Source of the DNA: a bacterium
GTDB taxonomy: Bacteria; Actinomycetota; Acidimicrobiia; UBA5794; ZC4RG35
Assembly: GCA_028819835.1 (NCBI GenBank)
Contig: JAPPKR010000202.1
Location: forward strand, 1-13,913
Direction of reading: 5' to 3'
Length of the DNA stretch: 13,913 nt
Below, piece by piece: positions 1 to 13,575 of this stretch (the first letter of the stretch is position 1; every line of letters starts with the position of its first letter). The position numbers were made by a program, and so were the translations under genes. The notes beneath the pieces are model-generated. The model did no database searches. It saw only the letters and a program-made list of their open reading frames with translations, and was not told the DNA's origin.

Positions 1-134
1 ACGAACGACAGGCAGGCGTCCCGCAGCGCCTCCACCATCTCGTCCACCAGGCTGATGAAGGCGCTGGAGAGAATCGAGAAGGTCACCGGATCGACGCCGC
101 CGGCCAGGTCCGGGGAGTGCCGGTCGGCGTTCAT
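1..134 (-). CDS. hyuB: HyuB-like hydantoinase / lactamase / 5-oxoprolinase subunit B, N-terminal fragment
   Basis: Only the first 44 complete codons are present; the gene runs off the left edge. The start is the ATG at 132-134, which overlaps the hyuA stop as ATGA. A strong GGAGGTGAGGG ribosome binding site lies inside the last hyuA codons. The translation contains DPVTFSILSSAF and then a VDEMVEALRDAC stretch. This matches the family's N-terminal pattern (DPVT, a short helix, then xDEM..ALR). HyuB-family proteins pair with HyuA to hydrolyse cyclic amides such as hydantoins, 5-oxoproline or lactams, usually with ATP; related pairs carboxylate ketones. Position directly after hyuA supports the assignment. 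The family is fairly secure from the motif plus context, but the specific substrate cannot be read from this fragment. Confidence 0.85.
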   Translation of the reverse strand, partial: MNADRHSPDLAGGVDPVTFSILSSAFISLVDEMVEALRDACLSF

Positions 135-2191
135 CCCTCACCTCCCTCTCCGGTGGTGTCGAGCACCAGGTTGAGATGACGGTCCACATAAAGACTCATT
201 CCGGGTGGCGCCAGGGTGGTGGAGTCCATCTGCTCCACCACGGCCGGCCCCACGGTCCGGAACCCGACCGGCAGGGAAGGCCGGGACCACACCGGCGTTT
301 CCACCCAACCTCCCGCCTCTCGCCAGTAGACCTGACGTGACGCCGAGGCGGTCGGCGCGGCGGAACCCTGCTCGGCCGCCTGCGGCCGGTACTTGTCGGA
401 GATCCCCGTTCCGGTGACGTTTATCCCGTGGATCTCCACTTCCCGCTCCCCCAGGTCGAAGGTGAACCTCTGCAGATACAACTTTCTGAAGAGTTCCACG
501 CTCTCCGAAAGACTCTCTCTGGTCATTCTGCCGGTGACCGGGATGGCGAACACCCTCCACTGTCCCGCGTAGCACATGTCGATGGTCTTCTCCACGAACT
601 GGTTCTCCGGCGCAATGCCCTCCCGGTCCAGGGCCGCCCGCACCCGGGCGTCGAACTCCTCAAAACGATCGTTCATCTCGTCGATGTCAACCGCCGCCGC
701 CTCCCCATAGAACATGCTGGCGCCCAGGTCATGGCGGATGTCGGCCATGAGACAACCCAGAGCCGAAGTGAGTCCGGGCCGGGGAGGCACCAGCACGGTG
801 GGTATGCGCAACTCGGCCGCCACCCGCGCCCCGTGGAACGGCCCTGCTCCGCCGAACGCCACCAGGGCGAAGTCGCGGGGGTCCAACCCCCTCCTCATGG
901 TGGCCAGCCTGATGGCGTTGGCCATGTTCGCCTCGGCCACCGCGATCACCGCCGCCGCGGCGGAGACCGTGTCGCCGCCCAGCCTTCGACCGATCCCGTC
1001 ATGGATCACCTTGTGGGCAAGCTCCGGCGAGATCTCCATCGCCCCGCCCAACATGGCGCCCGGCCGGAGGTTCCCCATCACCACGTGGGCGTCGGTGTTG
1101 GTGGGCTGGTCCCCTCCCTTGCCGTAACAGGCCGGTCCGGGCACGGCCCTCATACTGTGAGGTCCCGAACGGAGCTTTCCTCCCGGGTCGAACCACGCCA
1201 CCGACCCTCCCCCTGCTCCGACGGTGATGATGTCCACCGCCGGGAACATGATCGGATGTCCCCACTCCACCTCCCAGGTCTCGGTGGTCCTCAACTGGCC
1301 TTCGAGGGTCACCGAGACGTCGGTGCTGGTCCCGCCGATGTCGAGGCCGATGATGTTCTCGAAACCGGCCAAGGCCCCTATCTCGCGGGCCGCGATCGCC
1401 CCCGCCGAAGGACCCGAATTGGCGGTGCGGACCGGGATGTCGGAGGTGGCCTCCACCCCCATCAAGCCACCCGCCGACTGCACGATCAGCACGTCACCGG
1501 GGTAGTCCCGACCCCGCAGACCCTGCTCAAGCGCCTGCAGGTAGTCGATCATCACCGGGATCAGGGCCACGTTGAGGATGGTGGTGGTGAAACGCTCGTA
1601 CTCGAGAATGCGAGGAATGGTCTCATGGGAGGTCCGGACCAGCGCCTCTGGGAACTCCTCCAGGATGATCTCCTTCATCCTCCGTTCGTTGCGGCCGTTG
1701 GTGTAGGAATGCAGGAAGCACACCGCGATGGTGCGGATGCCCCGACCCCTCAGGATCCGTGCCACCGCCCGGGCCTCACTCTCGTCGAGAGGAGTACGCA
1801 CCTCGCCGGAACTGAGCGTCCGTTCAGTGACTTCCAAGCGGTCTCGCGGCTTGACGATCGAGGGACGGGGGGACTCGTGGTAGATGTCCCATATGTCCTC
1901 CTTCGAGCCGCGGGCGGACTGGGTCAGGACGGCGGTGACACCCCTGGTGGTCACCATGGCCACCCGCGGGAGGCGTCTCTCTATCAAGGCGTTGGTGCCC
2001 AGGGTGGTCCCATGAGCGAAAGAGCGGAACCGGTCCCCTGTCACCTCCGCTTCATCCATGGCATTGAAGACTCCCCCGAACCCGTCGGGAGTGGTGGGGG
2101 TCTTGACGACCTGCACCCCACCCTCGGGATCGGCCATCACCCAGTCGGTGAAGGTCCCGCCGATGTCGACCCCGATCCTGAACTCAGCCAT
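131..2191 (-). CDS. hyuA: HyuA-like hydantoinase / lactamase / 5-oxoprolinase subunit A
   Basis: A 686-residue protein of normal length for the HyuA family, which has an actin/ASKHA-type ATPase fold and works with HyuB on cyclic amides. Visible motifs are the N-terminal phosphate loop GVDIGGTFTD (residues 7-16), GTTLGTNALIER (61-72), a second phosphate motif GLDIGGTSTD (282-291), VGAGGGS (324-330), GPACYGKGG (352-360) and TNTDAHVVMGNLRP (364-377). The start ATG shares one base with the livF stop (TGATG), and the stop overlaps the hyuB start (ATGA), so translation of the three is probably coupled. The neighbouring Liv-type importer and RidA suggest a nitrogen-containing cyclic substrate brought in from outside. 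Relatives include N-methylhydantoinase, 5-oxoprolinase, caprolactamase and acetone or acetophenone carboxylase subunits; sequence alone does not separate these. Family secure, substrate unknown. Confidence 0.92.
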   Translation of the reverse strand: MAEFRIGVDIGGTFTDWVMADPEGGVQVVKTPTTPDGFGGVFNAMDEAEVTGDRFRSFAHGTTLGTNALIERRLPRVAMVTTRGVTAVLTQSARGSKEDIWDIYHESPRPSIVKPRDRLEVTERTLSSGEVRTPLDESEARAVARILRGRGIRTIAVCFLHSYTNGRNERRMKEIILEEFPEALVRTSHETIPRILEYERFTTTILNVALIPVMIDYLQALEQGLRGRDYPGDVLIVQSAGGLMGVEATSDIPVRTANSGPSAGAIAAREIGALAGFENIIGLDIGGTSTDVSVTLEGQLRTTETWEVEWGHPIMFPAVDIITVGAGGGSVAWFDPGGKLRSGPHSMRAVPGPACYGKGGDQPTNTDAHVVMGNLRPGAMLGGAMEISPELAHKVIHDGIGRRLGGDTVSAAAAVIAVAEANMANAIRLATMRRGLDPRDFALVAFGGAGPFHGARVAAELRIPTVLVPPRPGLTSALGCLMADIRHDLGASMFYGEAAAVDIDEMNDRFEEFDARVRAALDREGIAPENQFVEKTIDMCYAGQWRVFAIPVTGRMTRESLSESVELFRKLYLQRFTFDLGEREVEIHGINVTGTGISDKYRPQAAEQGSAAPTASASRQVYWREAGGWVETPVWSRPSLPVGFRTVGPAVVEQMDSTTLAPPGMSLYVDRHLNLVLDTTGEGGEG

Positions 2192-2895
2192 CAGATCCCC
2201 AGATAGGCCCTTCGCACGAGATCGCTCTCGAGCACATCCTGGGTCTCGCCGCTCTCGACCACCAAACCCGACTCCATCACATAAGCTCTCCGGGCGATCT
2301 CCAAAGCCAGGAAGGCGTTCTGCTCCACCAGCAGCACAGTCAACCCCTGGCGGTTGAGGTCGAGGATGATCTCGGCCAGATGGTCCACGATGATCGGGGC
2401 CAGACCCGCCGACGGCTCGTCCAGCAGCAGGAGCCGAGGCTCGGCCATCAGAGCCCTGGCTATGGCAAGCATCTGCTGCTCCCCGCCGCTCAGGGTCCCG
2501 GCGCGCTGGCGGGCCCGTTCGGAGAGGCGCGGGAAAAACTCGAAGGCCCGCTCCAGCCGTCGGCGGTACTCGTCCTCCTCGTTGACCATGTGAGCGCCCA
2601 TCTCGAGGTTCTCCAGAACCGTCATGGCGGGAAAGAGTTCCTTGCCTTGCGGCACGTGGCCCAGGCCCATGCCGACTATCTCGTGAGGTCTGAGGCTGTC
2701 GATTCTCTCACCCTCGAAGGAGATCTCGCCGCTCTGGGGTCTGAGCACTCCGGAGACGGTGAGCAGCAGAGTGGTCTTTCCCGCGCCGTTGGCTCCGATC
2801 ACCGTCACCAACTCCCCCTCCGGCACGCTGATCGAGACATCGAAGAGCACCTGCACCCGCCCGTAGGCCACGTTGAGAGCGTTGATCTCAAGCAC
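2191..2895 (-). CDS. livF: Branched-chain-type amino acid ABC transporter ATPase LivF
   Basis: A 234-residue ATP-binding subunit, cytoplasmic face, powering a HAAT-family importer. Walker A GANGAGKTT (residues 34-42), Q-loop around Q83 in VPQGKELFP, signature LSGGEQQ (135-141) and Walker B LLLLDEP (155-161) are all intact. The short form, ending in a DLVRRAYLGI-like tail, is typical of LivF. The start is GTG at 2893-2895, eight bases inside the end of livG, with no clear ribosome binding site, so translation probably couples to livG. The stop shares a base with the hyuA ATG. The partner ATPase is the livG product. The branched-chain name is a family label; the real ligand is more likely the substrate of the adjacent hydrolase. 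Confidence 0.95.
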   Translation of the reverse strand: MLEINALNVAYGRVQVLFDVSISVPEGELVTVIGANGAGKTTLLLTVSGVLRPQSGEISFEGERIDSLRPHEIVGMGLGHVPQGKELFPAMTVLENLEMGAHMVNEEDEYRRRLERAFEFFPRLSERARQRAGTLSGGEQQMLAIARALMAEPRLLLLDEPSAGLAPIIVDHLAEIILDLNRQGLTVLLVEQNAFLALEIARRAYVMESGLVVESGETQDVLESDLVRRAYLGI

Positions 2896-3655
2896 CGCGG
2901 CGTTTCCCCAGGTAGGCGGTGATCACATCGGGGTTGCCCACTATCTCCTCGGGGGTCCCCTCGGCGATCTTCGCGCCGAAGTTGAGCACGGTGATCCTTG
3001 TGCAGATGTTGGTTATCAAGCGCATGTTGTGCTCCACCAGGAGAACCGTGACCCCCTGGCTTCGCAGCGTCCTGATCAGGTTCATCAAATAGGCTGCTTC
3101 CTCGGGATTGAGGCCGGTGGCTGGTTCGTCCAAGAGCAGCATCTTGGGCTTGGCCGCCAAGGCGATGGCGATCTCCAGATACCGGTGCTCTCCGGCCGAG
3201 AGGTCCCGGGCCACCGCGTCGATCCGCTCGGCGAGGCCCACGAAGGCGAGCAACTCCCGCACCCGTTCCTCCATCTCCCTGCTCTGCTCCAGGTATTTTC
3301 TGGACCTCGTCAGCGCTCCCAGCAGCGATGTCGGATTCTTGAGGTGGCTTCCGTGGAGTACGTTGTCCCGGACGGTCAGGTTCTCGAACAGGGTGGTGAT
3401 CTGGAAGGTGCGAACCAATCCCAGACGGGCCAGTTCGTGAGGTTGCTCGCCTGAGACGTCCGAACTCTGGTACCTAACCACCCCCCTGGTGGGCTTGATG
3501 TAGCCCGTGATCAGGTTGAGGGCAGTGGTCTTGCCGGAGCCGTTCGGCCCGATCAGACCCCGGATTTCTCCCTCTTCCACAGACAGGTCCAAGCGGTCCA
3601 CCGCCGAAAGGCCGCCGAACATCCTGGTGAGGCCGCTGGTCTCTAGGATCGGCAT
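2888..3655 (-). CDS. livG: Branched-chain-type amino acid ABC transporter ATPase LivG
   Basis: A 255-residue ATP-binding subunit paired with LivF. Walker A GPNGSGKTT (residues 36-44), Q-loop Q85 in VRTFQITTLF, and Walker B MLLLDEP (172-178) are present. The signature reads LSAGEHRYLEIA (152-163), a variant of the usual LSYGEQRRLEIA of LivG proteins, with Ala and His at positions normally Tyr and Gln. This is probably tolerated, since the SxGE core is kept. The LivG-type insertion between the Q-loop and the signature (residues about 101-150) is present. The ATG start lies 2 bases after the livM stop, and the end overlaps livF by 8 bases, so it belongs to the same operon. Confidence 0.95.
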   Translation of the reverse strand: MPILETSGLTRMFGGLSAVDRLDLSVEEGEIRGLIGPNGSGKTTALNLITGYIKPTRGVVRYQSSDVSGEQPHELARLGLVRTFQITTLFENLTVRDNVLHGSHLKNPTSLLGALTRSRKYLEQSREMEERVRELLAFVGLAERIDAVARDLSAGEHRYLEIAIALAAKPKMLLLDEPATGLNPEEAAYLMNLIRTLRSQGVTVLLVEHNMRLITNICTRITVLNFGAKIAEGTPEEIVGNPDVITAYLGKRRGA

Positions 3656-3657
3656 CG

Positions 3658-4680
3658 CTACTCCATCCCCACCCCGGCCCGGGCTCGGTCTTCGCCCTCC
3701 GCGGTCGCCTCATCTCCGGATTTCCTGCGTTCCCTGCTGCTCCGAACTGCCCTCTGTAGAGCGGGGAAGACTCCGATCGGCATGAACAGCACCACCAGCA
3801 GCAACACCACGCCGAATATCACGAAGCGGTATTCCTGCAGGGCCCGCAGCCACTCGCTCACCAGGACGAAGATCGCCGCGCCCAGGACCGGACCCCACAG
3901 CGTTCCCGTCCCTCCCACCAGGACGACTATCAGGAAGATGAACATGTAGTCGAGACCCAGGAGGTTCGGGTTGACGAACCGAAAGTGGTGGGCGTACAGG
4001 GCGCCGGAAAAGCCCACCAGCGCGCAGGCGAACGAGAACGCCAGGACATAGTATTTGGTAGCCGCCACACCGATGGACTTGGCCAGGTCCTCGTTCTCGT
4101 GGATGCTGCGCACTCCTCTCCCGAACCGGGAGGAGCGCAGCCTCGACAGGAGAAACACCACCCCCAGCAGCAACAGCAGGGCGAAGTAAAAGTAAGCCAA
4201 CTCCGAGCGTATCTCCCAGCCGAACAGGCTGGGTGGGGGGACCTGGCGCAACCCTGACGGACCGCCGGTGACCGGTCTCCACCGGAGAGCCACCGTCCAG
4301 GCCAACACTCCGAAACCCAGGGTGACGATCGCCAGTTCAAGGTTCCGGGTGCGGCGCAGCGCTATGTATCCGATCAGGAGACCCACCAGGCCGGCGGCGG
4401 CCGGCGCAGCCAGGAACCCGATCCAGGGAGATATCCCCAGATCAAGCGCCAGTTTCGCCGACACATAGGCGCCGAACCCCCAGAAAGCGGCGTGTCCGAA
4501 AGAAAATTGCCCCATCTCACCCATGATGTAATCGAGACTGAGCCCGGCGATCGCATATATCACAATCAGGACCAACAGACCACGGTTGTAGGTGTTGGTA
4601 AACAGGAACAGCGGCACCATCGCAACCACCAGGAGCAACAAACCTCCCAGCCACCATCCCGGTGGGATTCTCAACCTCAC
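3658..4680 (-). CDS. livM: Branched-chain-type amino acid ABC transporter permease LivM
   Basis: A 340-residue integral membrane permease of the LivM group, forming the inner-membrane channel with LivH. It has many hydrophobic helices beginning at about residue 9, and the family landmark GQFSFGHAAFWGFGAY around residues 57-72. A second landmark, VGGTGTLWGPVLGAAIF, lies near residues 256-272. The C-terminus is a charged, Arg/Glu-rich tail of about 30 residues, longer than the minimal family end and probably cytoplasmic. The start is GTG at 4678-4680, preceded by GGGAGG about seven bases upstream inside the end of livH; the gap to livH is one base. Confidence in the family is high. The transported compound is inferred only from the hyu genes downstream. 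Confidence 0.95.
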   Translation of the reverse strand: MRLRIPPGWWLGGLLLLVVAMVPLFLFTNTYNRGLLVLIVIYAIAGLSLDYIMGEMGQFSFGHAAFWGFGAYVSAKLALDLGISPWIGFLAAPAAAGLVGLLIGYIALRRTRNLELAIVTLGFGVLAWTVALRWRPVTGGPSGLRQVPPPSLFGWEIRSELAYFYFALLLLLGVVFLLSRLRSSRFGRGVRSIHENEDLAKSIGVAATKYYVLAFSFACALVGFSGALYAHHFRFVNPNLLGLDYMFIFLIVVLVGGTGTLWGPVLGAAIFVLVSEWLRALQEYRFVIFGVVLLLVVLFMPIGVFPALQRAVRSSRERRKSGDEATAEGEDRARAGVGME

Positions 4681-4681
4681 T

Positions 4682-5545
4682 TCACTTCCTCCCGAACAGG
4701 CCCTGGGGGCGCAGCAGCAGAACGATGATCATCACCACGTACAGGTACCCCTGGCGGTAGTAGGTGGATACGAACTGGCCGAACAACGCCTCGGTCACGC
4801 CCATGAACAGGCCCACCGCCACCGCTCCCGCCACGTTCCCCATCCCCGCCACGATCACCACCGCAAAACCGGTGATTAGCAGAGGTTGTCCCAGGTTGGG
4901 AGATGCGGACGAGACCAGGACAATCAACACCCCGGCCAGGGCCGCCAATCCGGACGCGACTATCAGGGTGGTGTCATAGACGGCGGTTGTGTTGATCCCG
5001 ATCAGACGGGCCCCCAGCAGGTTCTGGCCGGTGGCCCGGGTCTTCTTGCCCAGCTTGGTGAAAGTAAGCATCAGGTACAGCCCCAGAACCGCCGCAAAGC
5101 ACACCCCCACCAGGAGGACGCTGGCGGTGGTTACGTACACCCCTCCCACCTGGACGATCTCATTGAAGGGCTTGTCCACTCCCTTGGGTCCGGACCCCCA
5201 CACCACCAGACTGCCGTTCAACAACATGAAGCTCAGCGCCACGGTCGAGAGGATCACCACCAACTCCGAATGTCCCAGGAACGGGCGAACCGTGACCCGG
5301 TTGACCAGGAAGCCGGCCAGGGCCATCACCACCACCACCAGCGCCGCGCCAGTGAAATAACCCATCCCGACCACATCGGTGACCGTGAACAGCAGCATGG
5401 CCCCCAACATGGTCAACTCGCCATGCGCCATGTTGATCACCCTCATCACTCCGAACACCAGGCTCAACCCGGCCGCGAAGATCACATAGATCGAGCCGTT
5501 GAGGAGACCGTTCCAGAGTTGCTGGCCGATGACGTCCCAACTCAT
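4682..5545 (-). CDS. livH: Branched-chain-type amino acid ABC transporter permease LivH
   Basis: A 287-residue permease of usual LivH length. The N-terminus carries NGLLNGSIYVIFAAGLSLVFG followed by MRVINMAHGELTMLGA (about residues 34-49), the classic LivH amphipathic motif. Several hydrophobic helices follow, and the end LLLRPQGLFGRK is a near-invariant LivH terminus. The ATG at 5543-5545 follows an AGGTGAGG ribosome binding site. It is separated from the iclR stop by 55 bases that hold a cluster of palindromes, unlike the tight junctions further downstream. The protein partners with LivM, LivG, LivF and the lipoprotein encoded at 7299-8546. Confidence 0.95.
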   Translation of the reverse strand: MSWDVIGQQLWNGLLNGSIYVIFAAGLSLVFGVMRVINMAHGELTMLGAMLLFTVTDVVGMGYFTGAALVVVVMALAGFLVNRVTVRPFLGHSELVVILSTVALSFMLLNGSLVVWGSGPKGVDKPFNEIVQVGGVYVTTASVLLVGVCFAAVLGLYLMLTFTKLGKKTRATGQNLLGARLIGINTTAVYDTTLIVASGLAALAGVLIVLVSSASPNLGQPLLITGFAVVIVAGMGNVAGAVAVGLFMGVTEALFGQFVSTYYRQGYLYVVMIIVLLLRPQGLFGRK

Positions 5546-5560
5546 CCGCCGGACCTCACC

Positions 5561-5593
5561 TGGTTACCGACCAACCCGGGTTGAGACAACCGA
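5561..5593. promoter_or_regulatory. Cluster of interleaved palindromes between iclR and livH
   Basis: The 55-base gap contains a perfect 12-base palindrome CAACCCGGGTTG (5572-5583). It overlaps on one side with GGTT-N6-CAACC (about 5562-5576) and on the other with GGTTG-AGA-CAACC (5579-5591). Repeated GGTTG/CAACC half-sites in alternating orientation look like a protein operator, and the adjacent gene encodes an IclR-family regulator. As RNA the same bases could form small alternative hairpins upstream of the livH ribosome binding site. No convincing promoter was seen here. The function is inferred; the repeats themselves are plain in the sequence. Confidence 0.45.
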
Positions 5594-5600
5594 TTCATGG

Positions 5601-6401
5601 CTAGCCGTAGATCGGGACCCGGTTGTCGAATCGCGTGGCTGATATCTCCTCGCTGATCGTCTCCGCGAAGGACTTGAGAATCGGGCCGTAGTGGCTTTCC
5701 AAGGTCTCGATGTCTGCTCGGGTCGCCAGGGTGGCCACCCCAACCGCTCCTATCACCTCCGCGCCATGAAACACCGGCGCCGACACCGACCGCAAACCGA
5801 CGGTCAGTTCCTGGTCGTTCAGAGCGATCCCCTTGATCCGCGCCTCCTCCAGTTGGGCCCGGTAGTCATCAGCGCCCGTAACCGTAGTGGTGGTCCGGCG
5901 CTGGAAGTCCATCTCCCTCAAAACCCTCTCCGCCTCCTGGGGCGGCATGGCCGACAGGATGGCCTTGCCCAAAGAACTCAGATGGGCAGGGAGGCGGCTG
6001 CCCACTTGAAGATTGATTGTGATGATGTCGTCGCGGTGACGCCTCGCCATATAGATGACTTCGGCGCCCTCCAGGACGCCGTAGTTGACGGCCGTCGCCT
6101 CCGGCAATGCCACGCTGATCTCATCCAGGTAGGGACGGATGTGCTCCACGAACTCTCGAGATTCAACCGCGGCGACCCCCAGATTCAGGACCTTCTTGGA
6201 AGGCCGGTAGAGACGCTCGGTCCTCCTTATGTACCCCAGGTCTTCCAGAACGCCGGTGAGGCGATAGACACTTGCCCGGCTGATCTGGGTGCGGCGCGCG
6301 ATGTCCGCCACCGAGAGCGCCGGAGACCTCTCGTCGAAGGCAGCCAGTATTTGCAGGCCCTTCGATAAAGACCCTGGCGGATGGCTGGGAACGGCAGTCA
6401 T
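5601..6401 (-). CDS. IclR-family transcriptional regulator, Pca/Pob-like subgroup
   Basis: A 266-residue DNA-binding regulator of normal IclR length. Residues about 10-72 form the winged helix-turn-helix (SLSKGLQILAAF, then ADIARRTQISRASVYRL as the helix-turn-helix, then wing YRPSKKVLNLG). Residues about 80-258 form the effector-binding domain, with VGSRLPAHLSSLGKAIL and NDQELTVGLRSVSAPVF. The latter motif is characteristic of the PcaR/PcaU/PobR subgroup, whose members often activate catabolic operons in response to small carboxylic acids. The ATG at 6399-6401 follows the EthD gene by 15 bases and has no clear ribosome binding site, so translation is probably coupled. It sits in the middle of the operon it likely controls, which would give autoregulation. 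Effector unknown. Confidence 0.9.
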   Translation of the reverse strand: MTAVPSHPPGSLSKGLQILAAFDERSPALSVADIARRTQISRASVYRLTGVLEDLGYIRRTERLYRPSKKVLNLGVAAVESREFVEHIRPYLDEISVALPEATAVNYGVLEGAEVIYMARRHRDDIITINLQVGSRLPAHLSSLGKAILSAMPPQEAERVLREMDFQRRTTTTVTGADDYRAQLEEARIKGIALNDQELTVGLRSVSAPVFHGAEVIGAVGVATLATRADIETLESHYGPILKSFAETISEEISATRFDNRVPIYG

Positions 6402-6416
6402 CTGAGACCAGCGGGT

Positions 6417-6746
6417 CTATTCCACACCGAACTCGTCCTCCTCGACGATCACGAACACCGAGTCCTGGGTCTTGGCGCCCATGAAGTTCTTCTCGTCGGC
6501 CAGGAGGGTGGCGTACTCGGGAGAGTCGGCCGTGGCCAGAAAGTCCTCCACGGTGTCATACCACACCTCGGCCACCCCGTCGCAAGGCGCAACACGCCCG
6601 GGAACCTCCAGGGGTCGGCATTGGACGTACCGGCGCACCCTGGGCATGGCCAGCACCAGGGGCGCATGCACATTCTTCCAATGTTCATGGAATTGCTGGC
6701 TGGTCAGGTCGGGTCTCCTGGTCAGCAGGGTCACCGTTTTGATCAT
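6417..6746 (-). CDS. EthD-domain protein
   Basis: A 109-residue single-domain protein of the EthD / dimeric alpha-beta barrel group. The N-terminal pattern MIKTVTLLTRRPDLTSQQF, followed by HEHWKNVHAPLV (residues about 20-31), is the family hallmark. It contains the His/Trp-rich segment typical of the fold. EthD proteins are small dimers found in many catabolic operons; several relatives bind heme or aromatic and lactone intermediates, but the general function is poorly defined. A good AAGGAG ribosome binding site precedes the ATG at 6744-6746. It lies 55 bases after ridA and 15 before iclR, within the transporter-hydrolase operon. A role in handling an intermediate of that pathway is an inference from position only. 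Confidence 0.82.
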   Translation of the reverse strand: MIKTVTLLTRRPDLTSQQFHEHWKNVHAPLVLAMPRVRRYVQCRPLEVPGRVAPCDGVAEVWYDTVEDFLATADSPEYATLLADEKNFMGAKTQDSVFVIVEEDEFGVE

Positions 6747-6801
6747 CTTCCACTCCTTGTGCCAGGGTGCGGATCAACGAACGGATGGCGCCGGAAAAGG
6801 G

Positions 6802-7200
6802 TCATCCGTCGTCCACCACCGCCACTGCCTCGATGTCGATCAGGGCGTGGTGAATCAACTCCGCCACCACCACCGACACCCGGGCGGGCTGTCGGTCGGG
6901 GAAGTACCGGGCGTAAATCGGCTCGTACCGGTGGTAATGGTCGTGATCGACCAGGTAAACCCGGGTGAGGACCACATCGCTCATCTTGGCGCCGGCCCGC
7001 TCCAAGGCAACCTTGAGGTTCTCCAGAGCCAGTTCCGCCTGTTCCTCCAAGGTTTCCCCCAGCACCCCGGTGGTCTTGTCCCAGCCCAACTGGCCCGTCA
7101 CCCAGAGGGTGTTCCCCGCCCGCACCACGTCATTCCAGCGGCTCTTCGACCCGATGGCCCGGAAGAGTTCCTCCTCAACCGGTACGAATACTCTCTCCAC
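6802..7200 (-). CDS. RidA/YjgF-family (Rid) protein, probable enamine/imine deaminase
   Basis: A 132-residue Rid-family protein, usual length. RidA proteins form trimers that hydrolyse reactive enamines and imines to ketones and ammonia; other subgroups act in catabolic pathways for pyrimidines, aminomuconate and similar compounds. The catalytic arginine is kept in QPARVSV (R107), as is the glutamate in IEAVA (E124). The cysteine that follows the arginine by two in E. coli RidA is a valine or serine here, so this is not the housekeeping form. VTGQLGWD (34-41) and DVVLTRVYLVD (75-85) are family landmarks. The start is GTG at 7198-7200, with AAAGGAGG 11 bases upstream. A strong hairpin separates it from the binding-protein gene. 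It may remove an imine formed after ring opening of the operon's substrate; that is inferred. Confidence 0.88.
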   Translation of the reverse strand: MERVFVPVEEELFRAIGSKSRWNDVVRAGNTLWVTGQLGWDKTTGVLGETLEEQAELALENLKVALERAGAKMSDVVLTRVYLVDHDHYHRYEPIYARYFPDRQPARVSVVVAELIHHALIDIEAVAVVDDG

Positions 7201-7232
7201 TCTCTTCGGCGCCTCCTTTCTCGGTCAATAAG

Positions 7233-7277
7233 GATGTATCGGCCTGGCCCCGTATAAAGGGCGCAGGCCGATACATC
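7233..7277 (-). terminator. Perfect 14-bp stem hairpin between the binding-protein gene and ridA
   Basis: GATGTATCGGCCTG (7233-7246) and CAGGCCGATACATC (7264-7277) are exact reverse complements. The 17-base loop contains a further GCCC/GGGC pairing with one bulged G, so the stem can extend to about 18 pairs. It begins 22 bases after the binding-protein stop. On the minus-strand transcript it is followed by CUUAUUGACC, which is not a proper U tract, so full intrinsic termination is unlikely. In ABC operons such hairpins often protect the upstream mRNA 3' end, or act as partial terminators so that binding protein exceeds the permease. That role is the likely one here. Confidence 0.7.
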
Positions 7278-7298
7278 AGAGTTATGGGAGAGTTACGT

Positions 7299-8546
7299 CT
7301 ACCCGGCTAACGGAACGGCGTCGACGGGATGCAGTTCACCACCGGTTGACTGGATGATGATCCAGTCGTCAACCAGTCGGAGTCCCTTCTCGTTGAAGCG
7401 CAAAGGCTTGCCGCGAGGAGTGACGAACCCATGCTCGTCGTTCATCAGGGGAGCAACGGCCGAATGGTCGGTCGTTCCTGCCGCCTCGATCGCCGCGATC
7501 AACTGCAGGGCCGCCGTGTAGCCCAGTTCGGACCACCAGTCCGGTGCATGGCCGAACTCGGCTTCATATGCCTCGGAGAAGGCGGCCGCCTCGGGAATCG
7601 ACTCGTCCAGAATCCACCCGGTGGAACTGTAAATGCCTTCGGAGAGGTCACCCAGGGCTTCCACTTCCGGCGGGGTGTACACGACCTCGTTGACCATGAT
7701 GTCACCCTCATAGCCGATCTCGCGGGCGGCTTGGACGGCATTCACGACCACGTCCTTACCCCACAGACCGAGATACAGCAGGTCCGGATCGTTGCCGACT
7801 CCCTTGGTCACTTCGACCCGAGCTTCAGCGGTGCCGTAGGGGAAGTACACCATGCCGGTGTACTCGAAGTCCGCCGCGGCCTCTTCCTCGAAGATGCGAG
7901 TGAACTCATCATGGGTGAGACGCACCCAGTCGGAGTCGACGCCCACACCCTGGACCCGCTTGTAACCCTGGGAGATCATCCAGCGGGCCAGCACCGACAA
8001 GGCGTTGCTGTCGGATTGGCTCTGCTTCACGGGGGCGCGGATGTGCACCGCTCCCTCGTATCCTTCTTCGGTGATCAACTCGGACCCGCAGGCGGTCACA
8101 ACCAATGGCATGCTGACCTCGGCCGTGACGTCCTTCATCGCCACGCATGTGGTGGCGTCGTTGCCGCCGGCGACTCCGGCCACGCCGTCGGCGATCGCCT
8201 TTCTCGCCGATGCCACCGACTCGTCGGCCGAGTAGCCCTCGTCGTAGTGGATCACTTCGATCTGGCTTCCCAGTAGTCCTCCGGCTTCGTTCTTCTGCAT
8301 CACGGCCAACTCGAACCCGTTGCGCATGATGTCGCCAAGGCCGCTTGCCACCCCGGAGTTGAACCAGATGGTGCCCAGCTTGATGGGCTCTGCCGGTTCG
8401 GGAGCGGCGGTGGTGGTTGGGGCCGCGGTGGTGGGAGCTGCCGTGGTCTCCGCCGCTTCTTCTTCTCCGTCACCACAAGCCGTGGCGACCAGAGCCAGGA
8501 CGGACAGCACTACCAATACTCGTACCCAAGATCTACGTTTACTCAT
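7299..8546 (-). CDS. Branched-chain-type ABC transporter substrate-binding lipoprotein
   Basis: A 415-residue extracytoplasmic binding protein of the LivK / periplasmic-binding type 6 family. Residues 1-23 form a signal peptide with two basic positions, a hydrophobic core and the lipobox VATA-C, so Cys24 is the predicted lipidated residue. It is followed by an acidic patch (GDGEEEAAE) and a low-complexity TTAAP linker (about residues 33-54) that tethers the mature domain. The domain starts at IKLGTIWFNSG and has the usual NEAGGLLG and Asp-rich first-lobe features. The ATG at 8544-8546 has an AAGGAG ribosome binding site. It is first in the operon, with a 333-base leader and promoter region upstream, consistent with high expression. 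It should deliver ligand to LivHMGF; ligand unknown, possibly the cyclic amide handled by HyuAB. Confidence 0.93.
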   Translation of the reverse strand: MSKRRSWVRVLVVLSVLALVATACGDGEEEAAETTAAPTTAAPTTTAAPEPAEPIKLGTIWFNSGVASGLGDIMRNGFELAVMQKNEAGGLLGSQIEVIHYDEGYSADESVASARKAIADGVAGVAGGNDATTCVAMKDVTAEVSMPLVVTACGSELITEEGYEGAVHIRAPVKQSQSDSNALSVLARWMISQGYKRVQGVGVDSDWVRLTHDEFTRIFEEEAAADFEYTGMVYFPYGTAEARVEVTKGVGNDPDLLYLGLWGKDVVVNAVQAAREIGYEGDIMVNEVVYTPPEVEALGDLSEGIYSSTGWILDESIPEAAAFSEAYEAEFGHAPDWWSELGYTAALQLIAAIEAAGTTDHSAVAPLMNDEHGFVTPRGKPLRFNEKGLRLVDDWIIIQSTGGELHPVDAVPLAG

Positions 8547-11198: not shown

Positions 11199-13328
11199 TC
11201 AACCCAACGCACCGAACCAGCGGTCGTGGAGTTGGCGGTAGACCCCGCTCTCGATGAGATCCAACAGGGCCAGGTTGACCCGCTCCCGGAAACCGGCGTC
11301 ATCCTGGCTCAGCACGAATCCGTACTGGACCTGTTCGAAGTCGGGACCGACCGTCACCACCTCGCCGCCTCCCTCCCGGGAGGCGTGGAAGTGAAGCACG
11401 GGAGCGTCGAAGACAATCGCATCGACCTCGCCTGCCTGTAGCAGCGAATACGCATCCCCGACGTCCTGGACCAGCACCGGCCCCACCCCTATGGAGGACA
11501 GGTAGGCTGCCCCCGCCGACTGGGAGACCGTGGCAACCCGGTGACCGGGTAAGTCGGAGGGTCCGGCGATCTCTCCACGCAGTTCGTTGACCGCCAGGGA
11601 AGACGCGATGGAAGCGGTGAAACTGGCGAACACCAGGGTTCCCAGGGCTATCCAGATCAGGGCGAACACTCTTCCCTTGTCGCCCCTGGCCACCTTGTCG
11701 CCATAACCGACGGTGCTCATGGTCACCACCGACCAGTAGAACGAGTCCCAGATTCCCTGGCGGTAGGGCACGGCGAAATCGGCGTTGTGATGCCGTTCCA
11801 ACCACCAGATCACATGGGCGGAGATCAGCACCGCCACACCGAACACCACCAGCAGCCAGGGAAGGTCCGAGGAGATGATGGCCCTCAGGAAGAGCAGGAT
11901 CCGATCCCCGATGTGCCGGTCCGCTTCGCTGGGCGCCATGATGGTCAACCCGGTGTTGAGCACCGGCAACGAGAAATCGACCAACCGCTCCCTGGATTCG
12001 GTGATTGCCACTCCCCCCAGGGCCAACCGGGCGACGCCACGTTCGATGTCATCGATCTGCTTGGCCACCGTGTCCACCGCGTGGATGTCGACTTCCATCC
12101 CCAGGCGGGCAGCCAGAAGGTGTGCCAACTCCACCTCGAAGCCGCTGTAGGAGCGGTCGTCATAAACCACGAATGGCGGGAGAATGCGTACGGCAACCGC
12201 CAGCCTGCCCCCGGCCGCCGAGACCGCGCCGCCGGCGTCCTCCACTCCCACCGCTTCCGGGTCCGCAGTTTTTATCCAGCCTTCCACGAGGGCTTGATTG
12301 GCGTCCACCCATTGCTCGGCATGGCGGCGGATGTCGTCGGGGTCCCCCTCGTCGGCCACCATCAAGGCGTTCTGGGCAGAGATGTCCCCCAGCGGGATCA
12401 CCACCTGCTCCAGCAGACTGCGGATGGATGGATTGGCTTCCAGGAACCGAGCGTTGGCCACAACTCGTATGTCATTGGGAGGCCAGCCGACCTGGCAGGG
12501 ATCGTTGGCGCATCCCCGGATCCCGGCGATCGTGGTCCGGTCCAGGTAGGCAGCCTGCTCCACAGGCAGTGAGGGGAAGGGCGTCTCGAGCCAGACCACG
12601 TCCCGACCAGGCTGTAACTCGCCAACGGTCCAGTTGGGCGTCCACGTGTAGTAGAGGACCGGACGCCCGGCTCGATACCGATCAAAAGTGGCCCTTATCG
12701 AGGGTGAGTAGGCGCCCTGCACCTGTTCGACCGTGTCCCTCAACCCGTACGCCTCCAGGTGGTGATCTATGATCGCAGCGCAACCCCACGAGGGCTCGCA
12801 CCCGGTGAGGTCGGCCAACCCGTCCCCGTCCTCATCGAACAGCGCGGCAAGTTCGGGGCTGGCCAAGTCGCCGAGGTTGGTGATCCCGTGAGCTTCCGCG
12901 GTGGCCTTGTCCACGAAGTATCCCTGCAGCGCGCCATCGTCCACTTGGGTTCCCACCACTTCCACTTGGTCCTCCTGAAGAAAGACGTCCTGTGTCGGGA
13001 ACCATCCGTTAGCCCACAGGTCCACGTCGCCAACCGCCACGGCTTCGTAGAACTCGTCATTGTCCATGGTCACAGGTCCCTCAACCTGATATCCGAGCCG
13101 CTGTATCAAGAGGCGATAAACCTCGGCTTGGAACCAGCCCGTATCCCAGGTGGCCCGCGCCATTCGCACCGGTTGCTTTTCAGCACCGCCGTCCTCAGAC
13201 TCGGCGACCGCCACGCCCGCGGCCAAGGGAGAAACAAGCATCACTGACAGTATTCCCAAGACAACTATGGAGATTCTGCGCATGAAGGATGTCCGAGTGG
13301 GCTGGGCCGAAGGGTAGCAAAGCGACAC
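11199..13328 (-). CDS. ProX betaine-binding domain fused to a prokaryotic glutamate-receptor-type potassium channel
   Basis: A 709-residue membrane receptor-channel. Residues 16-42 are a signal peptide (MRRIS start, hydrophobic core, AVA cleavage site). Residues about 52-356 form a full ProX-type glycine/proline betaine-binding domain. W109 (NGWFPTQ), W181 (CEPSWGC) and W229 (YYTWTPNW) match the three cage tryptophans of E. coli ProX, and C177/C183 match its disulfide; C273/C278 form an extra pair. A short Gly/Ala linker leads to SBP_bac_3 lobe S1 (375-466; R446 in TESRERLVDFS). M1 (489-509), the pore helix and TVGYGD filter (539-544), and M2 (551-580; SFTASIASSLAV, like the receptor SYTANLAAF motif) follow. 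Lobe S2 (588-706; QSAGAAYL, D641) completes the GluR0 plan. The GTG start has GAAAGGAG 8 bases upstream; the ATG at 13281-13283 better suits the signal peptide. Each module is secure; gating ligand and physiology are inferred. Confidence 0.93.
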   Translation of the reverse strand: MSLCYPSAQPTRTSFMRRISIVVLGILSVMLVSPLAAGVAVAESEDGGAEKQPVRMARATWDTGWFQAEVYRLLIQRLGYQVEGPVTMDNDEFYEAVAVGDVDLWANGWFPTQDVFLQEDQVEVVGTQVDDGALQGYFVDKATAEAHGITNLGDLASPELAALFDEDGDGLADLTGCEPSWGCAAIIDHHLEAYGLRDTVEQVQGAYSPSIRATFDRYRAGRPVLYYTWTPNWTVGELQPGRDVVWLETPFPSLPVEQAAYLDRTTIAGIRGCANDPCQVGWPPNDIRVVANARFLEANPSIRSLLEQVVIPLGDISAQNALMVADEGDPDDIRRHAEQWVDANQALVEGWIKTADPEAVGVEDAGGAVSAAGGRLAVAVRILPPFVVYDDRSYSGFEVELAHLLAARLGMEVDIHAVDTVAKQIDDIERGVARLALGGVAITESRERLVDFSLPVLNTGLTIMAPSEADRHIGDRILLFLRAIISSDLPWLLVVFGVAVLISAHVIWWLERHHNADFAVPYRQGIWDSFYWSVVTMSTVGYGDKVARGDKGRVFALIWIALGTLVFASFTASIASSLAVNELRGEIAGPSDLPGHRVATVSQSAGAAYLSSIGVGPVLVQDVGDAYSLLQAGEVDAIVFDAPVLHFHASREGGGEVVTVGPDFEQVQYGFVLSQDDAGFRERVNLALLDLIESGVYRQLHDRWFGALG

Positions 13329-13330
13329 AT
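13265..13330 (-). other. Possible 21-codon upstream reading frame overlapping the channel gene start
   Basis: An ATG at 13328-13330 lies six bases after GAAAGGAG and opens a frame that begins MCRFATLRPS and ends with TAG at 13265-13267. It overlaps, in another frame, both the GTG start of the channel gene (13328) and the internal ATG (13283). If ribosomes choose this ATG, they would finish 19 bases past the internal ATG, a geometry that permits coupled re-initiation there. The alternative is that GTG at 13328 is the real start and this frame is meaningless. No homology is recognised. Confidence 0.25.
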
Positions 13331-13401
13331 AAGGCGCTCCTTTCCGTCCTGAATTTGGATGTCATTCCACTAGGTGAAATAAGAAAAAAGAGTGACCGCT
13401 T

Positions 13402-13452
13402 TTGACGACGCGCCCGCAGGTTCGTAAGTAGGGTTGCTGGAAAAATACTTAC
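13402..13452. promoter_or_regulatory. Divergent intergenic region: inverted repeat over a candidate promoter
   Basis: GTAAGTA (13424-13430) and TACTTAC (13446-13452) are perfect reverse complements with centres 22 bases apart, about two helical turns, as expected for a dimeric regulator. On the plus strand, TTGACG (13402-13407) and TAAGTA (13425-13430) are 17 bases apart, so the left arm would cover the -10 of a promoter for the BCCT gene; that -10 is weak. The region 13365-13450 is also more AT-rich than its surroundings. No convincing minus-strand promoter for the channel gene was found, though it must lie in or near this 237-base gap. Confidence 0.4.
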
Positions 13453-13536
13453 CCCCGCCGGTCCGGGCTGAGGTTTGACTGGAGATCGTTGGCCGAGGGT
13501 GGTAGTGAATAGAGAAGACGACAGAAGGAGGCGAAA

Positions 13537-13575
13537 ATGGTCGATCCACGAGTAGAAAGGAGTTCGTATGTCTGA
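13537..13575 (+). other. Possible 12-codon leader frame overlapping the BCCT gene start
   Basis: ATG at 13537-13539 follows a strong AGAAGGAGG (13523-13531) with 5-base spacing and encodes MVDPRVERSSYV, then TGA at 13573-13575. Its last codons overlap the BCCT start ATG (13568) in another frame, and they contain the BCCT ribosome binding site GAAAGGAG (13555-13562). Translation of the leader would therefore pass through and expose or occlude that site. This is a plausible coupling or leader element. The strong ribosome binding site is the main evidence; the peptide itself resembles nothing known. Confidence 0.35.

What the first reader, a model, noticed from the sequence alone, without database searches (positions are those of the whole stretch)
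11199..13328. Betaine-binding ProX domain fused to a glutamate-receptor-type potassium channel
Seen: one uninterrupted frame carries a whole ProX-like domain (residues about 52-356) and a whole GluR0-like unit (S1-M1-pore-M2-S2, 375-706). Known: prokaryotic ionotropic glutamate receptors such as Synechocystis GluR0 usually have only the ligand-binding and channel parts; animal receptors add an N-terminal domain of the LIVBP fold. Inference: here an unrelated periplasmic-binding module, ProX, takes the amino-terminal-domain position, giving a possible osmolyte-sensing or doubly gated potassium channel. I am not aware of a described example.
Basis: partly seen in the sequence, partly recalled or inferred. 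Interest (0 to 1): 0.93.

Follow-up and report, generated by a model that had tools for sequence, protein, structure and literature searches.

The report
Betaine-sensing glutamate-receptor-type potassium channel
One bacterial gene joins a domain predicted to bind the salt-protectant betaine to a glutamate-receptor-type channel predicted to carry potassium, and because it sits beside a betaine-transporter gene in several bacterial phyla it likely ties potassium flow to betaine uptake during salt stress.

Summary
Window 11199-13328(-) is one open frame: signal sequence, whole ProX/OpuAC domain (53-356), short linker, GluR0-type S1-M1-pore-M2-S2 unit (374-706) with a TVGYGD filter. It is no assembly join: the window is collinear at 94% with a held genome, and 54 intact fusions were found in at least five phyla. 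In 55 aligned fusions both predicted ligand sites are kept: ProX cage W109 and W181 55 of 55, third position aromatic 55 of 55; amino-acid-site Arg and Asp 55 of 55; K+ filter 54 of 55. The sampled channel modules form one clade. A BCCT transporter gene lies in the fetched flanks (about 6 kb) of 42 of 54 loci (37 of 41 with full flanks), against 0 of 14 free ProX loci. Database names, where given, say ABC-transporter ProX, but no ABC ATPase was found next to the fusions. I found no description in print (open-access searches only). Most likely it is a two-ligand K+ channel in which betaine on ProX tunes an amino-acid-gated pore, coupling K+ to betaine during osmotic adjustment. Ligands, gating and conductance are untested.

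The parts
11199..13328 (-). ProX-GluR0 fusion gene, 709 codons from GTG 13328 (694 from ATG 13283)
13203..13328 (-). Leader and signal sequence (hydrophobic stretch at residues 21-39)
   Evidence: hydropathy; low pLDDT there
12261..13172 (-). ProX/OpuAC domain, residues 53-356
13002..13004 (-). Trp109, aligns with E. coli ProX Trp65 (cage residue)
   Evidence: alignment, counted by hand; conserved 55 of 55; cage role of Trp65 recalled
12786..12788 (-). Trp181, aligns with ProX Trp140
   Evidence: 55 of 55; role recalled
12642..12644 (-). Trp229, aligns with ProX Trp188
   Evidence: 48 W, 6 F, 1 Y of 55; role recalled
12210..12260 (-). Linker, residues 357-373, low confidence in model
11931..12209 (-). 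S1 half of the ligand-binding core, residues 374-466
11991..11993 (-). Arg446, predicted alpha-carboxylate contact
   Evidence: aligned with 2pyy; 55 of 55; role recalled from iGluR structures
11796..11864 (-). M1 helix, residues 489-511
11697..11714 (-). TVGYGD K+ selectivity filter, residues 539-544
   Evidence: sequence; 54 of 55
11580..11681 (-). M2 helix, residues 550-583, with SFTASIAS resembling the iGluR SYTANLAA gate motif
   Evidence: motif comparison by eye, motif named in PMC3483616
11211..11579 (-). S2 half of the ligand-binding core, residues 584-706
11406..11408 (-). Asp641, predicted alpha-amino contact
   Evidence: aligned with 2pyy; 55 of 55; role recalled
13329..13567 (.). 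Intergenic region between the divergent fusion and BCCT genes
   Evidence: no Rfam match in window at gathering scores
13568..13913 (+). Start of a divergent BCCT transporter gene, cut by the window end
   Evidence: Pfam BCCT E 3e-5 on 115 aa, 23.1 bits, below the 27-bit cut-off, the gene being cut; 109 of 115 identical to the complete BCCT of L053

Best explanation
This gene encodes one continuous protein in which a ProX-family domain, predicted to bind glycine betaine, precedes a GluR0-type module predicted to form a potassium channel opened by an amino acid, and betaine binding would likely tune that channel while the BCCT transporter encoded next door likely imports betaine. Shown: the fused frame, its conservation and spread, both sets of aligned ligand-contact residues, the K+ filter, the predicted fold of each module, and the gene linkage. 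Inferred mechanism: four subunits form an inverted K+ pore with the S1S2 cores outside; an external amino acid (glutamate or glutamine type) closes S1S2 and opens the pore as in GluR0; ProX, outermost, takes the place of the animal amino-terminal domain, and its closure on betaine shifts the opening probability. After osmotic upshock a bacterium first holds K+ with glutamate and later replaces these with betaine; a channel that reads released glutamate together with external betaine could let K+ move when betaine is there to take its place.
For: Domains and folds. Conserved sites: W109 and W181 55 of 55, W229 aromatic 55 of 55, R446 and D641 55 of 55, TVGYGD 54 of 55. One fusion clade in the sample, SH-aLRT 99, 27 fusions against 37 single-domain channels. 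Purifying selection on both halves. BCCT within the fetched flanks in 42 of 54 loci and 19 of 26 clusters at 75% identity, in divergent, convergent and co-directional layouts, against 0 of 14 free ProX loci (some of these 14 records are short) and 0 of 3 single-domain GluR0-like channels of the same class. The BCCTs keep a WTxFYWxWW tryptophan stretch (12 of 12 inspected); the 6 tested pass the BCCT subfamily cut-off and score highest on the betaine_BCCT model, though under its cut-off. Synechocystis GluR0 carries K+ and slows shrinkage after KCl upshock, more so with glutamate; its authors discuss the K-glutamate to compatible-solute switch (PMC13099474).
Against: No ligand, current or phenotype was measured. 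12 of 54 loci lack a BCCT in the fetched flanks, among them all six intact cyanobacterial ones and the Bacteroidota and Desulfosarcinaceae ones; four of the 12 (L061, L066, L072, L076) have full flanks. In two Jiangellaceae loci the filter reads TPFGAGN, so K+ selectivity is not universal. pTM 0.50 leaves the placing of ProX on the LBD undefined. W229 is F or Y in 7 of 55. In Synechocystis the gluR0 deletion grew better, not worse, on KCl agar, so the physiological sign of such channels is not simple. Direction of K+ flow cannot be told.
Confidence: 0.6

Rival explanations
1. The ProX half is a tethered scavenger: it captures betaine and hands it to the neighbouring BCCT transporter, and the channel half serves as anchor or as a separate K+ path; betaine does not gate the pore.
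For: BCCT linkage; a free ProX gene accompanies it in 35 of 54 loci, with a lipobox in L053 and L059 and an N-terminal hydrophobic stretch in L031 (read), showing that membrane-tethered ProX near BCCT is a theme here.
Against: Where a free anchored ProX exists it already does the tethering; the channel filter and amino-acid site are kept as strictly as the cage; cyanobacterial loci keep the fusion without BCCT in the fetched flanks.
Confidence: 0.2
2. ProX here acts mainly in subunit assembly, as animal amino-terminal domains partly do, and its ligand is incidental.
For: Animal ATDs drive subunit interaction (PMC3483616 passages).
Against: The Trp cage is invariant or aromatic in 55 of 55, which assembly alone does not explain.
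Confidence: 0.1
3. It is an ordinary ProU-type ABC substrate-binding protein, as databases name it, that picked up a channel tail.
For: Source names, where given, read glycine betaine/L-proline ABC transporter substrate-binding protein ProX or the like.
Against: With a LivG-type query, ABC ATPase hits occur in 11 of 54 fusion loci, weak (54-68 bits) and 1.5 kb or more from the fusion; 11 of 14 free ProX loci have one upstream on the same strand.
Confidence: 0.05
4. Betaine or a similar osmolyte is the true agonist and the S1S2 core is a structural coupler.
For: Osmolyte gene context.
Against: Arg446 and Asp641, the alpha-amino-acid contacts by alignment, are 55 of 55.
Confidence: 0.05

Closest known systems
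GluR0 of Synechocystis and Nostoc (prokaryotic ionotropic glutamate receptor)
   Different: GluR0 has no amino-terminal domain (PMC6385376 and PMC3483616 passages); here a ProX domain precedes S1 and a BCCT gene is often nearby
ProX of the E. coli ProU ABC transporter (1r9l)
   Different: Fused to a channel; no ABC ATPase found next to the fusions
Animal and plant iGluRs with an amino-terminal domain
   Same: An extra binding-protein domain in front of LBD-pore; AMPA LBD-TMD chains matched over about 375 columns, at high rmsd
   Different: Animal ATD is of the LIVBP type (recalled); here OpuAC type; K+ filter; no M4
BCCT betaine transporters (BetP/OpuD type)
   Same: Neighbour gene; Pfam BCCT full length in two complete neighbours scanned (L013, L023), Trp stretch
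   Different: Known BCCTs work alone (recalled); here they are often followed by an OpuAC-type binding-protein gene; the glycine motif reads GLGIG or GIGIG in five close relatives of the window's group, GMGIG in ten others

Membership tests
Prokaryotic ionotropic glutamate receptor (GluR0 type) | Ligand core split by two membrane helices and a pore loop | tested here: met
Prokaryotic ionotropic glutamate receptor (GluR0 type) | K+ selectivity filter (Group 1 of Ger et al. 2010) | tested here: met
   window has TVGYGD; 54 of 55 aligned fusions
Prokaryotic ionotropic glutamate receptor (GluR0 type) | Arg and Asp contacting the amino acid | tested here: met
   by alignment to 2pyy only; roles recalled
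Prokaryotic ionotropic glutamate receptor (GluR0 type) | Ligand-opened K+ current in a tetramer | not testable with these tools
   needs electrophysiology
ProX / OpuAC betaine-binding family | Whole-domain profile match above curated cut-off | tested here: met
   Pfam 156.4 bits over 21.2, NCBIfam 347.8 over 215
ProX / OpuAC betaine-binding family | Tryptophan cage | tested here: met
   cage positions recalled
ProU ABC transporter component | Encoded with ProV ATPase and ProW permease | tested here: not met
   no ABC ATPase hit within 1.5 kb of the fusion at 54 loci, some with short flanks; permeases were not searched
Eukaryotic-type iGluR | LIVBP-type (type I) amino-terminal domain | tested here: not met
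   N-terminal domain is OpuAC; no Peripla_BP or ANF match in this protein
Eukaryotic-type iGluR | Third full membrane helix M4 after S2 | tested here: not met
   protein ends with S2

The most novel reading that the evidence does not exclude
A bacterial glutamate-receptor channel that acquired an amino-terminal sensory domain independently of animals and plants and works as a two-input osmolyte detector: glutamate on S1S2 and betaine on ProX together decide K+ flow, forming with a BCCT transporter and an anchored ProX a membrane module that swaps K-glutamate for betaine.
Probability: 0.42. Interest if true: 0.94.

Novelty: new variant of a known kind. Interest (0 to 1): 0.86.

Why it matters
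[quoted passage not shown] A widespread bacterial family with a different binding protein in that place would be a second, independent case of the same solution, and a simple system for asking how an outer binding domain controls an iGluR pore. It also offers a direct protein-level link between betaine and K+ control in bacterial salt adaptation, which the papers I could search do not describe.

Tried and rejected
Assembly or frame artefact: rejected. ABC-transporter component: rejected as main reading. Neighbours of seven of the 12 intact loci without BCCT (L061, L064, L065, L066, L072, L076, L080) and of the interrupted L083, 20 proteins in all, gave no shared osmolyte gene: histidine kinase, radical SAM, luciferase-like, MTHFR, D-Ala ligase (in L066 and L072), an MscS-type channel gene (L072), EamA and others. 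RNA families: none in the window at gathering scores. tRNAs: none. Local duplication of the neighbouring free ProX as source of the fused domain: not supported; 12 neighbouring ProX proteins form their own clade (support 100) apart from 25 fused ones (81) (quick method). Literature: ten searches. Nine bore on the architecture or its context and listed no paper whose title or abstract start describes it; one search listed 20 of 12,782 and 15 of 18 papers. sought the cage residues and its two hits were not opened. Only open-access PMC text was searchable. Ger et al. 2010 (PMC2950845) was read in parts 1-2 of 4 plus a term search (no betaine, no OpuAC), its supplements not seen. PMC6385376, PMC5818414 and PMC3483616 were seen as passages; PMC13099474 as part 1 of 5 plus passages.

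Limits: the genome scan used two peptide patterns from an alignment of Acidimicrobiia-group fusions and kept 80 of 111 matches, so far-off fusions may be missed; most loci are MAGs, whose binning may err, the named cultured carriers being Salsipaludibacter albus, Haloactinopolyspora alba and Halomicronema sp. CCY15110. Protein-search counts come from about 8,000 capped candidates. The channel tree took 27 of the 55 aligned fusions and 37 singles chosen from the 120 listed rows, quick method with some long branches. Residue counts use 54 loci plus the window. Of the 76 loci, 8 were dropped: L056, L075, L077, L081 cut by contig ends, L078, L083, L084, L092 interrupted or partial; 14 are free ProX. 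The four interrupted loci count against universal integrity of the gene.

Full report

It is real. The 13,913-base window is collinear at 94% with genome G001. Among 60 relatives, 12 hold full-length fusions. In a class-wide sample, 13 of 198 genomes hold a GluR0-like channel at E <= 1e-25 to the query used; by frame length and neighbouring analysis 10 of those are fused and 3 are not. A scan of genome contigs gave 76 loci: 54 intact fusions, 8 partial or interrupted, 14 free ProX. By record title the intact ones lie in Actinomycetota (Acidimicrobiia, Nitriliruptoria-type with Salsipaludibacter albus AS10, Jiangellaceae with Haloactinopolyspora alba), Cyanobacteriota (with Halomicronema sp. 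CCY15110), Thermodesulfobacteriota and other Deltaproteobacteria, Chloroflexota and Bacteroidota; a Kiritimatiellae copy is cut by its contig end. Most are MAGs. Two protein searches listed 120 of 791 and 120 of 683 hits; every listed row shows OpuAC, SBP_bac_3 and Ion_trans_2.

Both sites are kept. Aligning the window with E. coli ProX puts W109, W181 and W229 on Trp65, Trp140 and Trp188 (the cage role of these residues is recalled). In 55 aligned fusions W109 and W181 are invariant, W229 is W 48, F 6, Y 1; Arg446 and Asp641 of the amino-acid site are invariant; TVGYGD is present in 54. The exception, H. alba, has TPFGAGN, and the interrupted Phytoactinopolyspora locus L083 shows the same letters. 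dN/dS is 0.09-0.15 in ProX and 0.10-0.15 in the channel against four congeners, higher (0.18-0.38) in the linker.

Origin. In a 64-row tree of channel modules the 27 sampled fusions fall on one side of a branch (SH-aLRT 99) from 37 single-domain channels, consistent with one fusion event followed by spread; more origins outside this sample are not excluded. In the ProX tree fused, neighbouring and ABC-linked ProX separate (81, 100, 12), so the deeper branching is weak.

Neighbourhood. In the window a BCCT gene starts at 13568 on the other strand, cut by the window end; its 115 residues match the complete BCCT of L053 in 109. In the near genome G001 a ProX-family gene overlaps the BCCT end by 4 bases; whether the window's own genome has it lies beyond the window. 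Over the 54 loci, 42 have a BCCT in the fetched flank (37 of 41 with at least 3 kb on both sides) and 35 a free ProX. Layouts differ: divergent in most Acidimicrobiia-type loci, convergent in L051, L052, L059, L060, operon-like in L042, L045, L054, L063, downstream on the same strand in L071, L073, L082. In L079, L085 and the interrupted L084 the order is BCCT, an OpuAC-type binding protein (that of L085 scores higher on the choline than on the ProX model, below both cut-offs), then the fusion. The 14 free ProX loci have no BCCT and 11 have an ABC ATPase upstream; 11 of the 54 fusion loci also have an ATPase hit, weak and at least 1.5 kb off. The three single-domain channels of the class have no BCCT in their flanks. 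Fusion loci lacking BCCT show no common partner.

Interpretation. What it works like: a GluR0-type amino-acid-gated K+ channel with an added betaine domain in the place of the amino-terminal domain. What it belongs to: the GluR0-type channels by anatomy; the ProX family by its front domain; neither the ProU transporter nor the eukaryotic iGluRs, whose defining features were tested and not met. GluR0 of Synechocystis was recently reported to carry K+, need its soluble domains, and slow shrinkage after KCl upshock, more with glutamate, while its deletion improved growth on KCl agar; its authors discuss early K-glutamate accumulation followed by a shift to compatible solutes (PMC13099474). A channel that also reads external betaine, placed beside a betaine-type transporter, fits that switch. 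The coupling, its sign and the direction of K+ flow are inference.

Novelty. Papers describe bacterial iGluRs as ligand core plus channel without an N-terminal domain. Nine searches of open-access text found no description of this fusion; subscription papers were not searchable. I therefore call it a new variant of a known kind, with a strong and directly testable hypothesis.

Noticed in passing
L065:5812-7947 and L083:6218-8101: Fusions of two Jiangellaceae genera have TPFGAGN in place of the TVGYGD filter, a possible change of ion selectivity parallel to that of animal iGluRs.
   Followed up: partly
L053:3053-3991, L059:7986-9077, L031:2944-3960: BCCT transporter genes are followed by ProX proteins with a lipobox (L053, L059) or an N-terminal hydrophobic stretch (L031), suggesting a binding-protein-assisted BCCT.
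   Followed up: partly
L084:5959-8117: In one Deltaproteobacteria MAG the fusion is broken into two overlapping frames in the linker; no repair was attempted.
   Followed up: partly
L088:2295-9188: Six ProX-family frames in tandem in Marinimicrococcus flavescens.
   Followed up: no
L072:9348-11486: An MscS-type mechanosensitive channel gene lies two genes downstream of the fusion in a Symploca MAG.
   Followed up: no
window 131-8546: A branched-chain amino-acid type ABC operon (binding protein with Pfam Peripla_BP_6 at 7299-8546; ATPases and permeases named by eye), an IclR regulator at 5601-6401 and a hydantoinase-like gene at 131-2191 (by eye).
   Followed up: no
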